Translations under genes and position numbers: made by a program
IMG/VR virus record: IMGVR_UViG_3300044859_001932
Location: 1 to 57,680 of that record
Source: a virus
DNA length: 57,680 bases
Reading direction: 5' to 3' (one strand)
Notes under the pieces: model-generated
The model's input: only the letters and a program-made list of their open reading frames with translations
Database searches by the model: none
What the model was told of the DNA's origin: nothing
In this document: in pieces, positions 7,870 to 57,680 of the stretch
How the letters are laid out: each line of letters begins with the position of its first letter
Numbering within the stretch: position 1 is the stretch's first letter

Positions 7870-9117
7870 TTATACGTATCTTAATGCTCTAGAAACGTTG
7901 ATCAATCTCTTAGTTAATCCATCAATATCTTCAATCTTAGTTGCCATATCGACATACTGAGACATCTTATCGTTTCCTGTAATTAGACTTTTAATAGACA
8001 TTGATCCTTCTTTCAAAAGATACTTGATTAGAATAGCCTTAGCATTCTCGTGTACCGCTGTTGTGTCATGTTCTTTATCGAAGAAAACCGTTTGACTAAC
8101 TTCTGCAGCTGCATCGTGAAAATAATTTGAAAGAAGGCTGTTAAGTTCTTCCATTGTCTCCTTATCTTCTGCTGATGCTCTCCATCCAGGTATTACCAAT
8201 TTCTCGTCTAGTGATTTACCTTTTGCTCTTTTAAAAGTTCTTTTTGCAATAGCGATAAAAATCGCGTTAAACATCTCAATGTCTTCTAATCTACATCTTA
8301 GAGTGTTTTCTCCAGTTCTAAAGTTAACTGAGTTGATTGGCATTCTTTGAGTGTTAGTAACTGTCCAAGTTTCGTAATCTGTTTTCTGAATCATTTGACC
8401 GTACGTATCACCACCTACTAGATTTTTAATTAGATCCCCATAAAGTTCTTTAGCTCTTTCTAATGCTCTTAGATAGAAATAGTACTTAACTTTACCTCCT
8501 TTAGAAATATCTCTTACTAGGTTAACTGCTTTACTATTACTAGAGTATCTCTCAATCTTACCGATGAAATCAAGTTCGATCAACCTTTGCATTGTTGCAA
8601 GTTGCATTAACTCTGTATTAGTGGGATGAGCTAATTGATCTCCACCCATCATAGGTTTTAATCTCTCTCTAATTTGATCAAGAGTAAGTTGTTCGCCTGC
8701 AGGATACATCTTATCAAAATCAACTTTCTCGTTAACGTCTCTCTTGCTTATAAGTGAAGCGGGAATACCGTTCTTAACAATTCTAAGCCAGATGTGTCTG
8801 AAAAGTTCTTGTGGTGTATCGAAGCTAGCAAATCCGTATGTTTCTAATCCAGGTTTACTTGAGTAGTGTTCGCAACAGTAATTACCGTCCTCATTAACCC
8901 ACATAGCAGTTTTAGGCATTGAGCTTCCTCTGATTTCTAACCTGATCTTTTGATTATCTAATCTCTGAACCGTTACGTCTAGTCCTCTTTTAAGATCCCT
9001 TGCAGAAGGTAGATCGCTGTCAAAAGAATCTATTAATTCTCTTCCTGGAGGATTAAGCCAGCTTTTACTCCAATAGGCTTCTCCGATAAACTCAGAGTAA
9101 TTTGAAACTTTTTCCAT
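7870..9117 (-). CDS. Putative internal virion protein, 415 aa
   Basis: The N-terminal MEKVSNYSEFIGEAY again matches the capsid-targeting pattern, with a possible cut after E13. The rest is soluble and unlike any family I recognise: a CCEHYSS segment near residue 80, an alpha-helical middle, and a C-terminal helical region (residues about 300-415). There are no transmembrane segments. It is 1 bp from its neighbours on both sides, forming an operon with 9119-10660 and 7617-7868. Possibly delivered into the host with DNA. Function unknown. Confidence 0.8.
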   Translation of the reverse strand: MEKVSNYSEFIGEAYWSKSWLNPPGRELIDSFDSDLPSARDLKRGLDVTVQRLDNQKIRLEIRGSSMPKTAMWVNEDGNYCCEHYSSKPGLETYGFASFDTPQELFRHIWLRIVKNGIPASLISKRDVNEKVDFDKMYPAGEQLTLDQIRERLKPMMGGDQLAHPTNTELMQLATMQRLIELDFIGKIERYSSNSKAVNLVRDISKGGKVKYYFYLRALERAKELYGDLIKNLVGGDTYGQMIQKTDYETWTVTNTQRMPINSVNFRTGENTLRCRLEDIEMFNAIFIAIAKRTFKRAKGKSLDEKLVIPGWRASAEDKETMEELNSLLSNYFHDAAAEVSQTVFFDKEHDTTAVHENAKAILIKYLLKEGSMSIKSLITGNDKMSQYVDMATKIEDIDGLTKRLINVSRALRYV

Positions 9118-9118
9118 A

Positions 9119-10660
9119 TTATAATTTAGATTTAATTCTTTTAGCTATATTTTGCTCCTCTTTGATAACGTTTTTCATGCTTTCAACTTGAGCTGGTTTT
9201 AGGGGAAGATTCCCTTCTTCATTAAGTTCTAAAACGTACTTAATCTCTTCTATACCTTTTTCTGTTGCCTTTAATATATCTTCGATATCAGCTTTGTTGT
9301 AATCGTCACCAATAAGTCTGTCGAATACATTTAGAGTTGCTTCACTGAAGATACCATATTGTTTAAACTCGTTCATGAAGTCACTTTTCTTAAGACCTTT
9401 AACGTCGAAGATGATCTGAGCAACCAATCCCGAGATCTTCTCCCAGTCTTCTTGTGGCATGGCGCCAGCTAAAAAACCTTTTGAAGTTGCTATAAGAGAT
9501 TCGATGATGTTTCTAATAGTAAGACCTGATCCCTCTTTGTAATATCTTTCAAGAGCGATTTTAATATCAGTCTCCATTTTAATCTTTGACATCACGGTGT
9601 CAATAAGATCCTTAGGATAATCAAGTCCTTCTAAAGCATCTTTTAACGTTCTGAAATTGTTACCGTTTTTATCTCTTAATCTGTTATTGGGTCTTGTTGC
9701 ATCCGTGTGAATTGATCCGTCAGTGTTAACTGTGATTCCGATTAAACTGTGAATATCAGTAACAGGAACGTTTGAGTTAATGATGTTGATCTGTACCCTT
9801 CCTTGACCATATGACCAGAATGTTGAATCTGTTCTAATACACCAGTTGGTGTCTGCACATATTGCTCTTTGAGCTTCTGGTGTTCTTGCAGATTCCACGA
9901 TGTAACCGTTTTTAGCATAAAGAATACCTGCCATTGGACCTAGGTCCTTAAGCTTCTTAAGTAATCCAGATTCGTCTTGGTTCCAGCCTTCAACAAATTC
10001 CAATGCGTCTTTAATAACATCGGCGAAAGCCACCTTTTCATCTCTGTATTCGGGATAAGTTCTGGTGTCTTCATATTTCTTTAGACCTTTGGTGAATTCT
10101 TTCCAGGCATTTTTTCCATCCTTGTCTTTTAGTTGTTCTAATTGGTTGGAGATTTCTGTAAGGTCGTCAATTTGTTTGTCTGTTGCTTTTGCGAAAACCT
10201 TTCTCATTTTACCAGTTAATTCGCTGTAAAACTTTCTAAGTTTTCTTTTTCTCTCAATGTTTCTAAGGTCATCCCCTAAAACCTCATAACCTGGACGAAT
10301 ATCATCTTCAGTAGGTTCAACTTTAGCATAATCATTAATATCCATAGACAAATCCTGTTTTAGGTTTTGCTTATATTTCATAAGATTATCGAAAATCTCC
10401 TTTAATTCCTCCATGTGAGCTTTTTGTTCGAATCTGAATTTTACGAACATTGGAGTGTAACCAGGGAATTTTTCTGTTAAATCCTTAACCTCTTTAAATT
10501 TTGGATCTGCTAGGATCTTTTTCTTTGTTTCTTCGTCAATTTCAGAAGTTTTTATTTTTTTTTCTAGAGCATATCTCTTTAAAAGATAGTCCTTAGCAGC
10601 TTGGACATTTTCCATCAGAGCTTGTTTCTCTGAAAATGTGGGGAAACTATATTTCATCAT
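9119..10660 (-). CDS. Putative internal virion protein with WCI-type domain, 513 aa
   Basis: Large soluble protein. Residues 1-250 are charged and helical, partly coiled coil. The middle carries EAQRAICADTNWCIRTDSTF, then WSYGQGR and strands ending in DGSIHTDATRPNNRLRD; this Trp-Cys-Ile core recurs in phage proteins with a GTKWCI-like motif of unknown activity. The early FPTFSEKQALMEN could be a targeting peptide (LME before N). It is the first gene of the minus-strand unit starting from the palindromic ATATAT element at 10681. Confidence 0.75.
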   Translation of the reverse strand: MMKYSFPTFSEKQALMENVQAAKDYLLKRYALEKKIKTSEIDEETKKKILADPKFKEVKDLTEKFPGYTPMFVKFRFEQKAHMEELKEIFDNLMKYKQNLKQDLSMDINDYAKVEPTEDDIRPGYEVLGDDLRNIERKRKLRKFYSELTGKMRKVFAKATDKQIDDLTEISNQLEQLKDKDGKNAWKEFTKGLKKYEDTRTYPEYRDEKVAFADVIKDALEFVEGWNQDESGLLKKLKDLGPMAGILYAKNGYIVESARTPEAQRAICADTNWCIRTDSTFWSYGQGRVQINIINSNVPVTDIHSLIGITVNTDGSIHTDATRPNNRLRDKNGNNFRTLKDALEGLDYPKDLIDTVMSKIKMETDIKIALERYYKEGSGLTIRNIIESLIATSKGFLAGAMPQEDWEKISGLVAQIIFDVKGLKKSDFMNEFKQYGIFSEATLNVFDRLIGDDYNKADIEDILKATEKGIEEIKYVLELNEEGNLPLKPAQVESMKNVIKEEQNIAKRIKSKL

Positions 10661-35090: not shown

Positions 35091-37442
35091 TTATTTGGAC
35101 CAGCCCCTAGCCTCTATAGCATCCATTACCTGTTTTGCAGAGATTCTCTTGGTGCACTCAAATTGTCTGGGGGTTCCTTTATGCTCAGGACACCAGAACC
35201 AATCTCCTGGGTCAAATGGGAATCTCTCAGGTGTATTAAAGCAGGAATTACAAACGTCATCCCTGTGAATTCTAATGCAGTCCTCATCAAACTCGTTATC
35301 CTTTGTGGTTACCCCTGATATCACAGCCACTTTTTTACCTAGAGCATGTGCTACCCAAGATAATCCGCTGGAAAGTCCTACGAAGAATTCGCAATGTTCT
35401 ATCCAGTGCATCATTTCAGTAAGTTCCATACCTGTCTTGTTCATGCAGTTCTTTGGGATCTCGTTCCAGTTTCCCTCCGTACCAAAGCTATAATATCGAT
35501 CTATGCAAACTGGGGTTAGTCCCTTCTTAGTAAGCATGTCGCATAATTTTTCCCAGGAATTGTTATTGTTCCAATGCTTAGCCTGTGCAGTACTGTGACT
35601 GGAAAAGCAAACATATTTCTTATTTAGTGGGGAAGGTTTTCCTGATGTCTTTAGCTGTGGTCTAACTTTGCCCATATCACCTAATCCTAGCTGTTTAGCG
35701 AAGCCTATTTGTAAAGGTAAGTCATAGATATAGTCACAGCATATAATGTCCGTATAAGCGCTTAAATCACCCGGCATTTGTATCAGATTTACATTGGGAT
35801 ATAATTCTTTGTAAAGAAATCCAAAATTAGATACCACATCACACACTTTGCCCAATCTTCTAGCATATTCTTCTGCATAGGGCATGAAAGATATAGTGTC
35901 ACCCAATGCCGCAGTTTTTAAAATTATAAGTGGGTTGTTTTCTTTAACATGGTTTGGACTAAAGTAAGATATTATCTGATCCGTGTTTAAAACCCGATAA
36001 AATCCAGACTCGTCATCACCATTATATTTAAAATGCGGTAAGTAGATGTCTTCAAGAAACCTTGATTTTTCTGATATAGACGGGATGCACTTAGTTAGAG
36101 ACACAAAGTCCTTAATAATGTCCTTAATATCATCTCTTCTTATGTTTCCGTCCTCTATCAAAACATGCTGATCTGTTAGATCCATCTTGATTGTTTTCAG
36201 AACCTCTGAGCCATCTTTTATAACGATTTCCCAGTCAATATACTCGTTTTTATTATCAGGGACTGTCGACCAAGCTCTTCTGCTTTTTCCAACATTTAAA
36301 AATGATTTAATCGATCCTGTTCTGGCATCTCTAAAAAATATAGCCTGTCCTTCGCCTTCAGGATATGAGCATTTATAAAAATGCGGATCCCTTTTAAACC
36401 AAGAGTAAAATCCATGATCCTCTCTCTTTTCTATTCTCTTAGGAATTGACAGGTAGTCATTAAGTATAAGGCTCTTCTGTGATATCTTACCGAATGAAGC
36501 ATAATCCATAAGCATTCTTGAAACAACAACTTCCCATGATATTAAACTTCTTTTATCTTTACATTCAAGAACATATTGGGGATATCTTTGGAGAACTTCA
36601 GAAACACCATCAACTAGATCTACAGTGTTTGCGGTGTCTACTCTTTTCATCCCTTTTAGATCAGCCTCCATTAAACCAACAACAGGAATACCCATCGCTA
36701 TACTTTCAGTAACTGTTAGGTTAGGATGTCCTGCTTCGATAGCTCCTGGATTTAAAAAGACGTGATGTTTTCTTATTTCAGCAAGCGAATCCTCATAATT
36801 CATGTCGTATATCACATTGAGTCTTATGTACGATGCTATCACATCATTCTTTTCGAAAAACTCCTTGTTGTTTTTACTAGGGCATATTATCGTTATGTGT
36901 AAATTCAGTACTGCTGCACACTCTATGCCTGGAATAAATCCCTTTCTGTCGAATAATGGATCTCCTAAAAGACCATTGTTTGCCATCATGACTAAACTTG
37001 GGCCTTTTTCAATAAGATCTTTGGATCTATCCTCAAAATAATAATCTTCTAAATTAGCCCCGTGGCTAAGGTATCTTAATTGTGGTAAAGAACCAAAATA
37101 ATCAACAAGATATTTAGCATGGACAAATGACAGAACAGATCCTTTTATAGCTTCCAGATTTTGTTTGTAAACATCAGAATCCTTTCCTAAATGATGTGCA
37201 TGGTGATCGTGATGGGAAAAAACGTAAGGAATACCTCTCTCTTTTAAAAGTAAAGCTAGATTAGCCATGTGTACATGGACAATGTCCCATTCACCTAACC
37301 TAACATCATCTGTGTAAATTATTTCAACCTCATGGCCAAGACCTCTTAATACCTTTGTGTATTCCCAGATTATTTTTTCTACTGCTCCCCATCCGTTAGG
37401 TGGTATCGGAATTACCCCTGGTGTGATTTGTGCTATTCTCAT
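35091..37442 (-). CDS. GT4 + GT9-like fusion glycosyltransferase (heptosyltransferase type), 783 aa
   Basis: The N-terminal half (1-330) is GT-B GT4-like: RIAQITPGVIPIPPNGWGAV, VFSHHDHHAHHLG and PNLTVTESIAMGIPVVGLME. The C-terminal half (500-783) resembles GT9 and the autotransporter O-heptosyltransferase TibC/Aah type: LIILKTAALGDTISFMPYAE, FSSHSTAQAKHWNNN, FFVGLSSGLSWVAHALGKK, then a four-Cys tail VCNSCF, FWCPEHKGT and FECTKRIS that probably binds iron or zinc. The middle (330-470) is an extra domain. It may glycosylate phage virion proteins or host surface structures. It follows the GT4/FkbM gene by 3 bp. Confidence 0.83.
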   Translation of the reverse strand: MRIAQITPGVIPIPPNGWGAVEKIIWEYTKVLRGLGHEVEIIYTDDVRLGEWDIVHVHMANLALLLKERGIPYVFSHHDHHAHHLGKDSDVYKQNLEAIKGSVLSFVHAKYLVDYFGSLPQLRYLSHGANLEDYYFEDRSKDLIEKGPSLVMMANNGLLGDPLFDRKGFIPGIECAAVLNLHITIICPSKNNKEFFEKNDVIASYIRLNVIYDMNYEDSLAEIRKHHVFLNPGAIEAGHPNLTVTESIAMGIPVVGLMEADLKGMKRVDTANTVDLVDGVSEVLQRYPQYVLECKDKRSLISWEVVVSRMLMDYASFGKISQKSLILNDYLSIPKRIEKREDHGFYSWFKRDPHFYKCSYPEGEGQAIFFRDARTGSIKSFLNVGKSRRAWSTVPDNKNEYIDWEIVIKDGSEVLKTIKMDLTDQHVLIEDGNIRRDDIKDIIKDFVSLTKCIPSISEKSRFLEDIYLPHFKYNGDDESGFYRVLNTDQIISYFSPNHVKENNPLIILKTAALGDTISFMPYAEEYARRLGKVCDVVSNFGFLYKELYPNVNLIQMPGDLSAYTDIICCDYIYDLPLQIGFAKQLGLGDMGKVRPQLKTSGKPSPLNKKYVCFSSHSTAQAKHWNNNNSWEKLCDMLTKKGLTPVCIDRYYSFGTEGNWNEIPKNCMNKTGMELTEMMHWIEHCEFFVGLSSGLSWVAHALGKKVAVISGVTTKDNEFDEDCIRIHRDDVCNSCFNTPERFPFDPGDWFWCPEHKGTPRQFECTKRISAKQVMDAIEARGWSK

Positions 37443-37445
37443 TTC

Positions 37446-39380
37446 TTAACCTTTTCTTTTTGCAAATATTACTCCGTGATCTGCATTGTTGTCAACCTCT
37501 TTCTGTATTAATTCATCATAAAGCTTAACCACAAAATCAGCGCTAACTAATTTTTCTATTAATGAATTGACTCTTCCGCCTTTATTGTCATGGAATTCTA
37601 AAATTATATTATTAGCTTTAGCTAGCGATTCAATATTAGTTTTATCCAGCAAATCATATTCAGCACCCTCTATATCAATCTTTAATAGATCAACTGAATC
37701 ATGATCAGACATCAGAGAGTTTAGTGTTTTCGATTTAACCAAAACCGTATTTTCGCTTATAGTTTTTGCAATGCTAGAAACTAAAGTGTTCTCTGGATTT
37801 ACACTAAGGTTAACATCTTCACCATCACCTGTTAATGCGATCTCGCTGAAAATAACATTTGGATTTTTTGAGTGCATCTTTCTGAATTCATTAGCAGCTA
37901 AAGGATTTGGCTCTATTGAGATGATCTTTTCGAACCCCACATCTAAACAATACTCTGTAAATAATCCAACATTAGCACCAACGTCAATAGCAACTTTCTT
38001 TCTGAATATGCTATCCGTCATAATGTCATATATTCGGTCAGTGAAGAACTCTTCATAATTTCTAAATATAGGATCTTTTGTATCCAATCTGCAAGCCCTC
38101 TTTGTTACGTTTCTAAATCTTATTACTGATTCAGAAATCACTTCCTCTCCCTGCTTATATTCAATTAAGAATCCACCAAAATTTGGGTTATTTTGGAAAT
38201 CATAAATATGGATGGGTACTGGAATTATCCAATAGGATCCACCTAAACTAAAGTTTATAGTGCAATGGAATATATTAGAACCACTGTCCACGTCCTTAAC
38301 ATAAACATCACAATTAAGTTCCTTTATGTTTCTTGAATCCCCTCTATAAACTATATCAAGTTTATTATCCCAAGGGGAAAATTTGTGGATAAACATATCG
38401 CTTTTATTATTCATAACTAATTCTTTTTTAGGGTTTAGTATTTCTCTTATTTGGTTTGCTATCTCTGTCATATCATCACTTCTAAAAAACTTTAGAGTGT
38501 TCGATTCCTGATACATGTCAACATAAACAGAAAGATTTCTTAGAAGCAATGTGGATTTCCAAGATATTGCTTCTTTGATAACGAGTGGACTTGTTTCCTT
38601 ATCATTGAATAAAGGAATTGAGGGGAATATAACAAGATCCGCTGCCTGATAGAATAAATCTACGTCATCTCTTTCCCCCCATACCTTACAATTGGGAGGG
38701 AGATTACTTGTGATAGGATTCCAATACCATTTAAAATTATCAGCCATTGTACCGATAAAATGGAATTCAACTTCCGGTAGCAATCTTGCAATCTCTGCGG
38801 TTTCTCTTTGATTTTTTCTTGGAGTAAATATACCTATCTGGATTATGTGTTTCTTATTAGGATCCAGTCCAAGTTTTGTCCTGCTATCTAAATAATCTCT
38901 TACTGGTTTCTTAGCTATCCCGTGTTCAATAACTTCAATTGGTACTTTAAGATCTCTTAATAAGTTAACCTGCCAAGGACTAACGACAACAAATTTATCG
39001 GGGAGATATATTTTTTCTTTAGGAGAAACTGACGAATCGTGCATGGTCTCAAATATTTTATATTCTCTGGCGTCATAGAATATAATATCCAGAAGATGGT
39101 GGCTTAAGAATTGCTCGCAAGGTTCTTCGAAATGTATAATATCAGGCTTCATCTCCTTGATTGCCTTAATGAGAATATCTTCTGGTTTATCGCCCCATGT
39201 TATTATTCTCTCTGAACCAAGTATGGATTGGATTCTTTTCCTAATTGTGTTGTAGGAAGACTCATGTCTTTTTTCAAAGACCCAAACTTCCGCTTCGTCT
39301 TTGATTTTGTCTATTTTATTCTTTAAATATTCCGGCATTCCTCCGGTAGACAGGTAAGGTACAATATAAAAAACTCTCAA
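37446..39380 (-). CDS. Glycosyltransferase (GT4-like) + FkbM methyltransferase fusion, 644 aa
   Basis: Residues 1-320: GT-B fold with YIVPYLSTGGMPEYL, PDIIHFEEPCEQF, IQIGIFTPRKNQRETAEIAR, ERDDVDLFYQAADLVIFPSI. Residues about 330-430 form a beta-rich linker. Residues about 440-644: FkbM SAM-dependent methyltransferase with AIDVGANVGLFTEYCLD, IISIEPNPLAANEF and LLKIDIEGAEYDLLD. It would transfer a sugar and O-methylate it. The pair with the next gene suggests a dedicated glycan pathway. Confidence 0.85.
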   Translation of the reverse strand: MRVFYIVPYLSTGGMPEYLKNKIDKIKDEAEVWVFEKRHESSYNTIRKRIQSILGSERIITWGDKPEDILIKAIKEMKPDIIHFEEPCEQFLSHHLLDIIFYDAREYKIFETMHDSSVSPKEKIYLPDKFVVVSPWQVNLLRDLKVPIEVIEHGIAKKPVRDYLDSRTKLGLDPNKKHIIQIGIFTPRKNQRETAEIARLLPEVEFHFIGTMADNFKWYWNPITSNLPPNCKVWGERDDVDLFYQAADLVIFPSIPLFNDKETSPLVIKEAISWKSTLLLRNLSVYVDMYQESNTLKFFRSDDMTEIANQIREILNPKKELVMNNKSDMFIHKFSPWDNKLDIVYRGDSRNIKELNCDVYVKDVDSGSNIFHCTINFSLGGSYWIIPVPIHIYDFQNNPNFGGFLIEYKQGEEVISESVIRFRNVTKRACRLDTKDPIFRNYEEFFTDRIYDIMTDSIFRKKVAIDVGANVGLFTEYCLDVGFEKIISIEPNPLAANEFRKMHSKNPNVIFSEIALTGDGEDVNLSVNPENTLVSSIAKTISENTVLVKSKTLNSLMSDHDSVDLLKIDIEGAEYDLLDKTNIESLAKANNIILEFHDNKGGRVNSLIEKLVSADFVVKLYDELIQKEVDNNADHGVIFAKRKG

Positions 39381-47933: not shown

Positions 47934-48776
47934 TTAATTCAACCTGTTTAAATTAACGTGGGTCCAGGTATCACCCCGATTTATTCTTCTAATTGTTGTT
48001 ATTGATGTTTGAAAAATTTTAGCTATTTCGGATACCCTGATATTACAAGATAACATATTTTTTATTTCAATAACTTGAGATTCTATCAATTTAACAGTAG
48101 ATCCAGCTGAATCTGGGAATCTTCCCCCTTCCCATCCTAAATCTATATACTTTTCATATTCAGATGAATCTATTTTTATACATTCCATAGTTTCTATATT
48201 CTTTATCCATTTCTTCCCGAATTGGGAATTTTTATTACCTACTCCATTCAATTTCTTTGATTCCCTCATCTTTAAAATAGTTTCATGTGTATGTGTTTTA
48301 TCTTTAAAAAAACCCATTTTAAGAACTCCGGATTCTTGCAATTCTTTGCATCTAGCAACTCCCTTTTCTCTACATTTTTTCGTGTTATCGATAAAATTAT
48401 CTCTATACTCTTTATCTTTCAGTTTTTCCTGGAATGCTTTATTTCCAGCTTCGCAAAAATCCTTTAGATGCTTTTCGTTTATTATTCCCCCGCCTCCCCC
48501 TGGTTGTATATTCATACACATAGGGTCGTTAATTAATTCCTCATTAACCAATTGGATTTCTCTATTTCTTAAATCCTCTCTAGTTTCAAGGAATTCCAAA
48601 ATATTCTTTCTGTGTGCATCTTTACCGTGCTTCTTAACAGAATTTTTGATTCTTTTTCCGCCACCCATATAACCGTCATTCAGATTATCTGTTGAGTGCA
48701 TTCCAATATAATATCTTTGATTTTTAATACACGTAATCATGTAGATGTAGTGATATTTGTGGGTTTCCCTTGCCAT
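47934..48776 (-). CDS. GIY-YIG homing endonuclease, 280 aa
   Basis: Residues 8-95 are a GIY-YIG nuclease domain (HKYHYIYMITCIKNQRYYIG, then GYMGGGKRIKNSVKKHG and the catalytic Glu region RDLRNREIQL is replaced by EDLRNREIQLVNEELI). The C-terminal part has NUMOD-like DNA-binding modules (KKWIKNIETMECIKI) and a helix-turn-helix IRVSEIAKIFQTSITTIRRI. This is the SegA-type of T4-like phages. It sits 54 bp from the tmRNA gene, typical of a homing enzyme beside a conserved RNA locus. Confidence 0.88.
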   Translation of the reverse strand: MARETHKYHYIYMITCIKNQRYYIGMHSTDNLNDGYMGGGKRIKNSVKKHGKDAHRKNILEFLETREDLRNREIQLVNEELINDPMCMNIQPGGGGGIINEKHLKDFCEAGNKAFQEKLKDKEYRDNFIDNTKKCREKGVARCKELQESGVLKMGFFKDKTHTHETILKMRESKKLNGVGNKNSQFGKKWIKNIETMECIKIDSSEYEKYIDLGWEGGRFPDSAGSTVKLIESQVIEIKNMLSCNIRVSEIAKIFQTSITTIRRINRGDTWTHVNLNRLN

Positions 48777-55303: not shown

Positions 55304-56974
55304 TTAAAATAAAGCGTTTATTAAGAATAAATTTGGGCTTATCGTGTTATAGCCCATAACCTCGATGAATCTATTAATAGGGTCCAAAATTGTTTTGGTA
55401 AATTGCATGTCATGGTCTATTGGTGGTGCGTATTCATAAGGATAAGTTCCCTGTGCATAAGCAAAAACGTTATTGTCCATAATGGACTTAGTCTTAACAA
55501 AATAATAGTTTATTTTCTCTCCGCTTCTAATTAAAGGGTATTTATCCTTATATTTTGATCTGTTTAGCAAAAGATTATGATAAGCTGCTGCTCTAACTTG
55601 AATAGGACATCCTTTTGTTACTTCTAAGGCACTTACATCGTTAAGGATATACTTTTCATAGTTATTAATTGCTATTGCAGCAGAGATGTTCCTAGGCTCC
55701 TGTATTTTAAAGTCTCTCTTAATATCCTTAAGCTCTCTTACAAATTCTCTTATATCGAATGCACGTCCTTTAGCAAAGATGAATTTTGTCAGATAAATTA
55801 GTTTCTCCCTAACAAAAGGCGGTGTTCCCCCTTTAATCATTTCTACGCCTACAGTCTTTATTTGTGAAAGCGGCTCCATGTGGATACCGTCAGAATAAAC
55901 TAGGTTGGTAACATACTTCTTCTTACCTAAGAATATACCATTTATTGCAAGATTCTCCATCTCGAAGTCCTGGTAGTTTTGGGTATCCCATTTTTTGGAG
56001 TATTTCTCGAAACATGTCTTAAGATATTCTGCTAGCCTATGTTCGTTTATCTGTAGGATAAGATCTTTAGGATCACCTTTCCAATCACAAGAATCTACTA
56101 CTTCTTGGAAGGTCACATAATTAGAATTATGCACCAATATGTCATTAGCAAAAAAAGTTTGATTATCATAACCCTCCTCATCTATTTCTAGATCGTATAC
56201 ATACTCGTCCTCAAATTCACCAATTTGTTCGCATGATACTATTTTTGAAAATCTGGTTGTTGCTTTTATTTCTTTATCGACAGAAACCTCTAAAACTAGA
56301 TCGGTATCAATATTAATTTCGCTTGCCTTTATGTGGATCTTAATCCCGTCTCTAAATACAGTAAGAGAATGGTCATTAGTTACTATTACTTCCTTACCCG
56401 TTCCAGTAACAAGTTTCCATTTTGGTTTTTTAACTTTATGCCTTATTATTTTTTTGATCGGTGAAAATGTTAATGCAGAATCAACATAATTAAGTGAATC
56501 TATACCATCAGGCTCTATTATTTCATTACCTCTATTATCAGTATGGTATCCGCAGGATCCGCTAAATGTTGAAAATAACTCATCAAATCTAATTTTTGAA
56601 TGATTTTCGCCATATTTAATACAAACAAGGGAGTCACCTAGCAGGCTGTCAGTGTCACCATAGATTACGAGAGGTTTGGCAACTCTTTTAACAGTAGTTA
56701 ATCCTAGCTTTTCGTGGAGATCCTTGTCAACATGCCAATACTCATGGAAGTATTTATGTAGAGCTTTTTCTGAATATTTAATCAGATCTTGACCCTGTAA
56801 TGTAACAGCCTCTGCAACTTCGGGATTAAAGCAAACAAACCATTGGTTTCCTAGGGCCCCGTAGATGGAGTTCATAGTTAATTTTATAGCCTGTTCCTCG
56901 TTCTTTAACTCGTTCTTTAGAGAAGTGAGTTTTTCTATTCTTTCTTCTATTTCATCAATTTCTTCCTTATTCAT
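55304..56974 (-). CDS. Family B DNA polymerase, C-terminal fragment with an intein
   Basis: 556 aa beginning at a region just before polymerase motif B: QAIKLTMNSIYGALGNQWFV (residues 28-47). Motif C is YGDTD-S, interrupted by an intein, then SNYVTFQEVVDSCDWKGD continues the extein, followed by palm/thumb sequence (GIFLGKKKYVTNLV, LSQIKTVGVEMIKGGTPPFV). The exonuclease domain and motif A (D-x-x-S-L-Y-P) are absent, so this is a split polymerase whose N-terminal part must lie elsewhere. The ATG follows the stop of a glycosyltransferase gene with no gap (TAAATG). The C terminus is intact (SPNLFLINALF). Confidence 0.92.
   Translation of the reverse strand: MNKEEIDEIEERIEKLTSLKNELKNEEQAIKLTMNSIYGALGNQWFVCFNPEVAEAVTLQGQDLIKYSEKALHKYFHEYWHVDKDLHEKLGLTTVKRVAKPLVIYGDTDSLLGDSLVCIKYGENHSKIRFDELFSTFSGSCGYHTDNRGNEIIEPDGIDSLNYVDSALTFSPIKKIIRHKVKKPKWKLVTGTGKEVIVTNDHSLTVFRDGIKIHIKASEINIDTDLVLEVSVDKEIKATTRFSKIVSCEQIGEFEDEYVYDLEIDEEGYDNQTFFANDILVHNSNYVTFQEVVDSCDWKGDPKDLILQINEHRLAEYLKTCFEKYSKKWDTQNYQDFEMENLAINGIFLGKKKYVTNLVYSDGIHMEPLSQIKTVGVEMIKGGTPPFVREKLIYLTKFIFAKGRAFDIREFVRELKDIKRDFKIQEPRNISAAIAINNYEKYILNDVSALEVTKGCPIQVRAAAYHNLLLNRSKYKDKYPLIRSGEKINYYFVKTKSIMDNNVFAYAQGTYPYEYAPPIDHDMQFTKTILDPINRFIEVMGYNTISPNLFLINALF
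56126..56647 (-). other. Mini-intein in DNA polymerase motif C
   Basis: 174 residues starting at the Ser of YGDTD/S (residue 110) and ending VHN before the +1 Ser of SNYVTF. The N-terminal block is SLLGDSLVCIKYG. Block B is VTGTGKEVIVTNDHSLTVF (T-x-x-H). Blocks F and G are VYDLEIDEEG...FFANDILVHN. No LAGLIDADG or HNH endonuclease domain fits in this length, so it is a mini-intein. It would splice itself out to give YGDTDSNYV, restoring the catalytic motif. Confidence 0.9.
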
Positions 56975-57680
56975 TTATCTTAAATTTGTTGGGTCACTCG
57001 TTACTTTAACTATATTTTCAGGATTTCTTGGTGATTTTAGATAAACCCAATTGCTTCCGTCGAATGTATTCCAGTAAATATAATCACTTGGCCCTTGGTT
57101 AGTTTCAATGAAATCATATCCAAAATTTCTTCTGCAGAAATTTAAAAAATTAAATCCTCCTGGATTTTTAACTATTTTCCCGTTCAAATCATTTATAAGC
57201 AATCCGGAGATAGATTGATCGTGTCTGTGCCCAACCTTACCGCAGTTTCCCACATCAACTCCATAAAAATCCCTTATGGGTTCGTCCAATGATGATAAAC
57301 TAGCACACTCATCTATAAGATTCCATTTTAACCACTCTGATACAAAATCTAGGGTTTTCTTGGATTTTTGAAAGACTATCATACCTGAAGCATGCTGTAT
57401 AGAATGGCGATACTTTTGCATATCCATTCTATTCATACAGGACTCTGTGGTAAAGTTCTCGTGTGTATGTGGAGCAACTTCGTTATTAACCATCCAAACA
57501 CTTTCAGTGCTAAGTATACCACCATTTGAGTTGCACAGTTCTTTTATAACATCAAGACTAAACACCGAAGAATCGAATGATAGATTAGTCCAATGCTCGG
57601 GTGAAACGTCATTGTAGATTAAAAAATCTCCATCTCCTATTGACTTTAAAGCTTCCAGAATAGTGAATGGTTTATAGCAT
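56975..57680 (-). CDS. Glycosyltransferase-like protein, partial (runs off window end)
   Basis: The frame is open to the window end; visible residues start CYKPFTILEALKSIGDGDFL, then IYNDVSPEHW, a GT-A-like D-x-D-style strand (KPF.I...AL..I.DGD.L.Y.D). Later MNRMDMQKYRHSIQHASGMI, then GHRHDQSISGLLINDL, the R-x-D-Q-S motif of several glycosyltransferases, and GSNWVYLKSPRN at the end. The donor and acceptor are unknown. It directly precedes the polymerase fragment with TAA-ATG junction. Confidence 0.72.
   Translation of the reverse strand, partial: CYKPFTILEALKSIGDGDFLIYNDVSPEHWTNLSFDSSVFSLDVIKELCNSNGGILSTESVWMVNNEVAPHTHENFTTESCMNRMDMQKYRHSIQHASGMIVFQKSKKTLDFVSEWLKWNLIDECASLSSLDEPIRDFYGVDVGNCGKVGHRHDQSISGLLINDLNGKIVKNPGGFNFLNFCRRNFGYDFIETNQGPSDYIYWNTFDGSNWVYLKSPRNPENIVKVTSDPTNLR

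What the first reader, a model, noticed from the sequence alone, without database searches (positions are those of the whole stretch)
55304..57680. Split family B DNA polymerase with a mini-intein, next to a glycosyltransferase
The gene begins just before motif B and lacks the exonuclease and motif A, so the polymerase is encoded in at least two pieces. Its start codon directly abuts a glycosyltransferase gene that does not belong to the polymerase. A mini-intein without endonuclease interrupts the catalytic YGDTDS. Split gp43 homologues are known in some T4-like phages, but the combination with an intein in the second piece and an unrelated gene directly upstream is unusual.
Basis: partly seen in the sequence, partly recalled or inferred. 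Interest (0 to 1): 0.7.

Follow-up and report, generated by a model that had tools for sequence, protein, structure and literature searches.

The report
Split phage polymerase with re-fused mini-intein
This phage makes its DNA polymerase as two separate proteins, and the second one carries a self-excising insert that was probably two separate halves in its recent ancestors and has been joined again; each part is known from other phages, but the apparent two-way switching between broken and joined inserts is less expected.

Summary
The minus-strand ORF 56974..55304 is the C-terminal piece of a T4-type family B DNA polymerase: motifs B and C, no exonuclease, no motif A. A 174-aa mini-intein sits at YGDTD^S, and the ORF's ATG directly abuts an upstream ORF.
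The window is a whole 57,680-base IMG/VR record, so the N-terminal piece simply lies outside it. In six close relatives a 465-467-aa exonuclease + motif A protein lies about 14-17 kb upstream on the same strand. No complete polymerase was found in them, and both pieces are under strong purifying selection. The break is in the fingers domain, as in Aeromonas gp43A/gp43B.
The combination is not new: Aeromonas Aes123/Aes516 and Tenacibaculum PTm1 already show split polB plus an intein in the second part. There the intein is itself split, usually by a Vsr-type endonuclease gene.
The distinctive point is that the window's intein is contiguous while its closest relatives (L002, L003, L060) are fractured at the same codon. 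Among 78 related polB inteins, contiguous and fractured states interchange at least 15 times. Models without fusion fit much worse, so the window most likely holds a recently re-fused intein. The glycosyltransferase label is unconfirmed, and that gene is absent from several relatives.

The parts
55304..56974 (-). gp43B precursor: C-terminal piece of family B DNA polymerase, 556 aa with intein, 382 aa after splicing
   Evidence: relatives L002-L008
56648..56974 (-). N-extein, 109 codons: second fingers helix region, motif B (KLTMNSIYG, 56884..56858), first half of motif C (YGDTD, 56662..56648)
56126..56647 (-). 174-aa mini-intein, S1 ... TNDHS (block B) ... VYDLEI ... HN, contiguous, no endonuclease
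   Evidence: PF14890; best PDB match: Aes123 PolB1 split intein, 9hth
56273..56278 (-). codons D|K of VSVD|KEI: the point at which L002, L003 and L060 carry about 1.17 kb with a stop codon, a free-standing endonuclease gene and a new start codon
56540..56647 (-). first 108 nt of the intein: 93.5% identical to L060 but about 50% to L002/L003 (mosaic boundary)
55304..56125 (-). C-extein, from Ser+1 (SNYVTF) to stop: rest of palm and thumb
   Evidence: no family match

Best explanation
The ORF encodes the second subunit (gp43B) of a working two-subunit T4-type family B polymerase. The first subunit (gp43A: exonuclease and motif A, ending in the first fingers helix) is encoded about 14-17 kb upstream, beyond the end of this record. 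The two chains probably associate through the fingers, where the break lies (inferred). A Ser1/Asn/Ser+1 mini-intein splices itself out of gp43B in cis and restores the catalytic YGDTDS (inferred from intact residues). This intein belongs to the phage polB 'YGDTD' inteins, most of which are fractured by a free-standing Vsr-type endonuclease gene. In the window it is contiguous, most likely because the endonuclease gene was lost and the two intein halves were re-joined in frame at the fracture point.
For: Partner: every close relative with enough sequence has one 465-467-aa gp43A and one gp43B, and no third polymerase locus. Same-strand spacing is about 14-17 kb. dN/dS is 0.014-0.017 for 43A and 0.02-0.10 for 43B exteins. 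Break: 43A aligns to PF00136 positions 16-142 and 43B from 133-147 onward, and 43A reaches residue 478 of the 1tgo polymerase. Intein: PF14890 above cut-off; best fold match is the fused Aes123 PolB1 split intein. Re-fusion: window intein C-half is 98% identical to L002 and N-start 93.5% to L060, both fractured at the same codon. On a 30-row tree the four contiguous inteins fall in four places, each near a split one. On 78 rows at least 15 changes are forced by well-supported branches. A 3-state model without fusion loses 21.8 log-likelihood units; a 2-state version loses at least 21.8 under random roots and at least 11.8 on bootstrap topologies. HEG divergence tracks intein (r 0.79) and C-extein (r 0.89) divergence.
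Against: gp43A of this very phage was not seen. No splicing or subunit assembly was tested. Both directions of change are supported: models without fracture also lose 6-11 log-likelihood units. A persistent contiguous allele, with endonuclease gained by the relatives, is therefore not excluded for this one case. The intein is a recombinant mosaic, so a single tree is only approximate. The tree sample comes from pattern scans and may be biased.
Confidence: 0.72

Rival explanations
1. The contiguous mini-intein is the older state. The endonuclease gene invaded it by homing in the relatives, always at the same point, so the window shows the state before fracture.
For: Models allowing gain of the endonuclease fit better than those without. 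Identical insertion points are expected from homing. Aes516 shows how the endonuclease is trimmed while the intein stays split.
Against: Models with gain only are rejected much more strongly (11.8-22 log-likelihood units). Endonuclease and intein divergence track each other. The window's nearest alleles on both sides of its mosaic boundary are fractured.
Confidence: 0.28
2. The fragment is a relic and a complete polymerase elsewhere does the work.
For: Only one polymerase piece lies in the record.
Against: Six relatives have only the two pieces. Both pieces are under strong purifying selection. Motifs and intein catalytic residues are intact.
Confidence: 0.03
3. The split is an artefact of assembly or sequencing at 56975.
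For: It lies near the record end.
Against: The same stop/start junction occurs in five other contigs, and 43B starts without the upstream ORF in L008, L061 and L064.
Confidence: 0.01

Closest known systems
Aeromonas phages Aes123, Aes509 and Aes516 gp43A / gp43B1 / gp43B2 with PolB1 split intein (JN377899, JN377902, JN377905)
   Same: Two-piece T4-type polymerase broken just before motif B; intein at the DTD^S site of the second piece; Ser1 and Ser+1; same fold
   Different: Their intein is split (with a VSR endonuclease gene in Aes123, without one in Aes516); 43A and 43B are adjacent; exteins are only about 27% identical. The window's intein is contiguous, and in its relatives 43A lies about 14-17 kb away
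Tenacibaculum phages PTm1/PTm5 split, intein-containing polymerase with VSR endonuclease (AP019524, AP019525)
   Same: Bacteroidota-phage polymerase in pieces with an intein at the same site
   Different: Intein fractured by the endonuclease gene
Two-subunit gp43A/gp43B of Aeromonas phages 44RR and 25 (Petrov et al. 2010, as cited in PMC2988022)
   Same: Two separately encoded parts reported to co-purify with polymerase activity
   Different: Split by an untranslated insert and a seg endonuclease; the second cistron carries an intron rather than an intein
Fractured genes (split intein with free-standing endonuclease; Dassa et al. 2009, own knowledge, paper not held)
   Same: The relatives L002, L003, L060, L064 and L010-L014 have exactly this layout in polB
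   Different: The window lacks both the split and the endonuclease
Campylobacter phages CC_R7 (contiguous polB intein), F379/CP21 (fractured), CPt10/CP220 (empty)
   Same: The same three states at the same site within one phage group
   Different: Their polymerase is not split into 43A and 43B

Membership tests
Family B DNA polymerase (PF00136) | Profile match with motifs B and C | tested here: met
   E 1e-17 over cut-off; KLTMNSIYG and YGDTD/S
Two-piece gp43A/gp43B polymerase | C-piece starts between motif A and motif B in the fingers | tested here: met
   30 residues from Met to motif B, no motif A
Two-piece gp43A/gp43B polymerase | Separate N-piece gene in the same genome | tested here: inconclusive
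   Present in all six near relatives searched; the window record ends before that point
Two-piece gp43A/gp43B polymerase | The two proteins form one active enzyme | not testable with these tools
   Needs co-expression and an activity assay
Intein (PF14890) | Splicing-domain profile and nucleophiles: Ser1, block B TxxH, penultimate His, last Asn, Ser+1 | tested here: met
   E 1.7e-11 over cut-off; residues read directly; best fold match 9hth
Intein (PF14890) | Splices in fact | not testable with these tools
   Needs expression and mass spectrometry
Fractured gene with split intein and free-standing endonuclease | Intein encoded in two ORFs with an endonuclease gene between | tested here: not met
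   Contiguous ORF; no relative of the endonuclease in the record at E<0.1
Cysteine-less Aes123-type PolB split intein | No cysteine and naturally split | tested here: not met
   Three non-catalytic cysteines and contiguous, though the fold and site are the same
Glycosyltransferase (upstream ORF) | Match to a glycosyltransferase profile or fold | tested here: inconclusive
   No Pfam or PHROG match; model pLDDT 42, unusable; a remote homologue lies in a sugar-gene cluster

The most novel reading that the evidence does not exclude
Fracture of phage polB inteins is a fast two-way switch. Free-standing Vsr-type endonuclease genes split the intein, and their loss re-fuses the halves into a cis-splicing mini-intein. 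The window holds a re-fused copy whose C-half is only 2% away in DNA from a fractured relative.
Probability: 0.55. Interest if true: 0.6.

Novelty: new variant of a known kind. Interest (0 to 1): 0.45.

Why it matters
Naturally split inteins are usually explained as endonuclease-bearing or contiguous inteins that broke. This locus and its relatives give close pairs of fused, fractured and empty alleles of one intein in one essential gene, so the direction and cost of splitting and re-joining can be tested directly. It also gives matched cis and trans versions of one intein for splicing work. Finally, it shows that two-subunit family B replicases with non-adjacent genes are common in a group of large phages (Bacteroidota phages among them), where a search for one complete polymerase gene would fail.

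Tried and rejected
Relic and assembly-break readings were rejected. A split intein joining 43A to 43B was considered and rejected: 43A ends and 43B starts without intein motifs. Structure of the upstream ORF: pLDDT 42, not used. 43B precursor model: pLDDT 59, used only for the intein part. Dassa 2009 is not held. Junction microhomology or an endonuclease scar in the window: none clear. L061's linker DNA (GATATAATACATAAAGAAATAG) resembles the leader after the stop of fractured alleles, but reads equally well in either direction.

Full report
WHAT IS THERE. The window is the whole of a 57,680-base IMG/VR record classed as linear and probably a fragment. At its right end, on the minus strand, ORF 56974..55304 encodes 556 aa. 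Pfam finds DNA_pol_B (E 1e-17) and Intein_splicing (E 1.7e-11), both over the curated cut-offs. The protein starts 30 residues before motif B, has no motif A and no exonuclease domain, and the record has none elsewhere. The catalytic YGDTDS is interrupted after YGDTD by 174 residues that begin with Ser and end with His-Asn before Ser+1. Without them the ORF is 382 codons, exactly the length in L004, L005 and L007, which have no intein. The start codon directly follows the stop codon of the upstream ORF. That junction recurs in L002-L005 and L007, so it is real.

THE MISSING PIECE. A scan of viral contigs with the window protein gave 23 loci, seven of them close relatives (L002-L008). In all six of these records searched for the exonuclease profile, a separate 465-467-aa protein with exonuclease and motif A (DFASLYP) lies on the same strand, about 14-17 kb upstream of the C-piece. 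Each record has these two polymerase loci and no other. The pieces abut on the PF00136 profile: 43A covers 16-142 and 43B starts at 133-147. 43A aligns up to residue 478 of the archaeal polymerase 1tgo and 43B resumes from RB69 gp43 residue 555. From my own knowledge of these structures the break is at the tip of the fingers, between its two long helices; the pairing of those helices is a plausible way for the subunits to hold together (inference). dN/dS is 0.014-0.017 for 43A pairs and 0.02-0.10 for 43B exteins, so both are functional genes. Huge phage LR756500 has the same two pieces about 13 kb apart, and Lak-A2 has them more than 200 kb apart. On a C-extein tree the two-piece state changes three times, against 11 in shuffles, so it is mostly inherited.

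PRECEDENTS. A review of T4 mobile elements reports that split gene 43 products of Aeromonas phages co-purify and have polymerase activity (PMC2988022, citing Petrov et al. 2010). GenBank records of Aes123 and Aes516 annotate gp43A, gp43B1 with N-intein and gp43B2 with C-intein, with a VSR endonuclease gene between the halves in Aes123. Tenacibaculum PTm1 is similar. The Aes123 PolB1 split intein is a studied cysteine-less split intein (PMC11923092), and its crystal structure is the best fold match of the window's intein (9hth, E 8e-13; also best by sequence). So a split polymerase with an intein in the second part is known.

WHAT DIFFERS: THE INTEIN IS JOINED. In L002, L003 and L060 the same intein is broken after VSVDI or VDIDI by a stop codon, a 383-385-aa free-standing endonuclease ORF, and a new ATG that resumes at MYREEI. 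The endonuclease matches PHROG 22677 and, weakly, a homing-endonuclease PHROG. The window reads VSVD-KEI straight through at that point. It is a mosaic: its first 108 nt are 93.5% identical to L060 but about 50% to L002/L003, and its last 147 nt are 98% identical to L002 but 80% to L060. Its nearest relatives on both sides of the mosaic boundary are therefore fractured. Exteins differ more (C-extein 86-90% to L002/L003), which fits recent horizontal movement of the intein.

DIRECTION OF CHANGE. On a tree of 30 polB inteins the four contiguous ones lie in four places, each near a split one. Endonuclease divergence tracks that of intein (Mantel r 0.79) and C-extein (r 0.89), as expected for co-inheritance. 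A wider scan gave 78 distinct polB inteins at this site: 41 fractured with an endonuclease-sized gap, 11 split with a short gap, 26 contiguous. The contiguous state needs 21 changes, at least 15 forced by well-supported branches, hardly fewer than the 21.9 of shuffled labels. A three-state model without fusion loses 21.8 log-likelihood units and one without endonuclease gain loses 7.6. Two-state versions lose at least 21.8 and 6.3 under random roots, and at least 11.8 and 10.3 on bootstrap topologies. Both directions occur. Aes516 gives a physical scar: its N-intein ORF ends in the last residues of the Aes123 endonuclease, so the endonuclease gene was there and was deleted. Campylobacter phages show the same three states at this site: CC_R7 contiguous, F379 and CP21 fractured, CPt10 and CP220 empty. 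For the window itself re-fusion is the better reading, not a proven one, because no scar is left in its linker.

THE NEIGHBOUR. The abutting ORF is the end of a 306-310-aa protein that is conserved in L002-L005 and L007. It matches no Pfam or PHROG family, and its model is too poor to use. A 52% identical homologue in L098 sits among an epimerase-like gene and other glycosyltransferase-like genes, judged by eye from their translations, so a sugar-transfer role is possible. In L008, L061 and L064 another ORF precedes 43B directly, so the neighbour is not part of the polymerase system.

LIMITS. No splicing, assembly or endonuclease activity was tested. gp43A of this very phage was not seen. Trees rest on about 170 columns of recombining sequence. 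The sample comes from pattern scans and is not random.

Noticed in passing
L002:3633-6382: A second fractured gene in the same phage: topoisomerase subunit A-like gene with N-intein, a free-standing 300-aa ORF (weak DUF7487 match), and C-intein plus the rest. It is uninterrupted in L003-L005, L007 and L008.
   Followed up: partly
L074:3890-8007: An endonuclease gene of the same family sits in a polB gene just before GGDTD with no intein: the polymerase is split into a 657-aa and a 303-aa piece, that is, a split without splicing.
   Followed up: no
L065:5677, L072:5280, L073:5344 (ORF openings before motif B): The second polymerase ORF opens without an evident start codon just before motif B (KLVLNGSYGAF), which suggests an intron at the 43A/43B boundary.
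   Followed up: no
window 56540..56647 and L002/L003/L060 equivalents: The first 36 residues of the intein are about 50% identical in DNA between alleles whose remainder is 83-98% identical. The second half of the endonuclease gene diverges likewise (about 60% against 89-98% elsewhere, L002 vs L003). Possible module exchange linked to target recognition.
   Followed up: partly
L083:4163-4588 (Aes516): The N-intein ORF ends with about 30 residues of the neighbouring endonuclease, a clear deletion scar of the VSR gene.
   Followed up: yes
window 47934..48776 (-): Free-standing homing endonuclease gene (PHROG 314, E 1.6e-33) about 7 kb downstream of the polymerase piece; a similar 280-aa ORF lies in L006 at 8378-9220.
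   Followed up: no
window 35091..39380 (-): Two long sugar-modification proteins: a 783-aa protein with a GT9-like domain and a 644-aa protein with GT4-like and FkbM methyltransferase domains.
   Followed up: no
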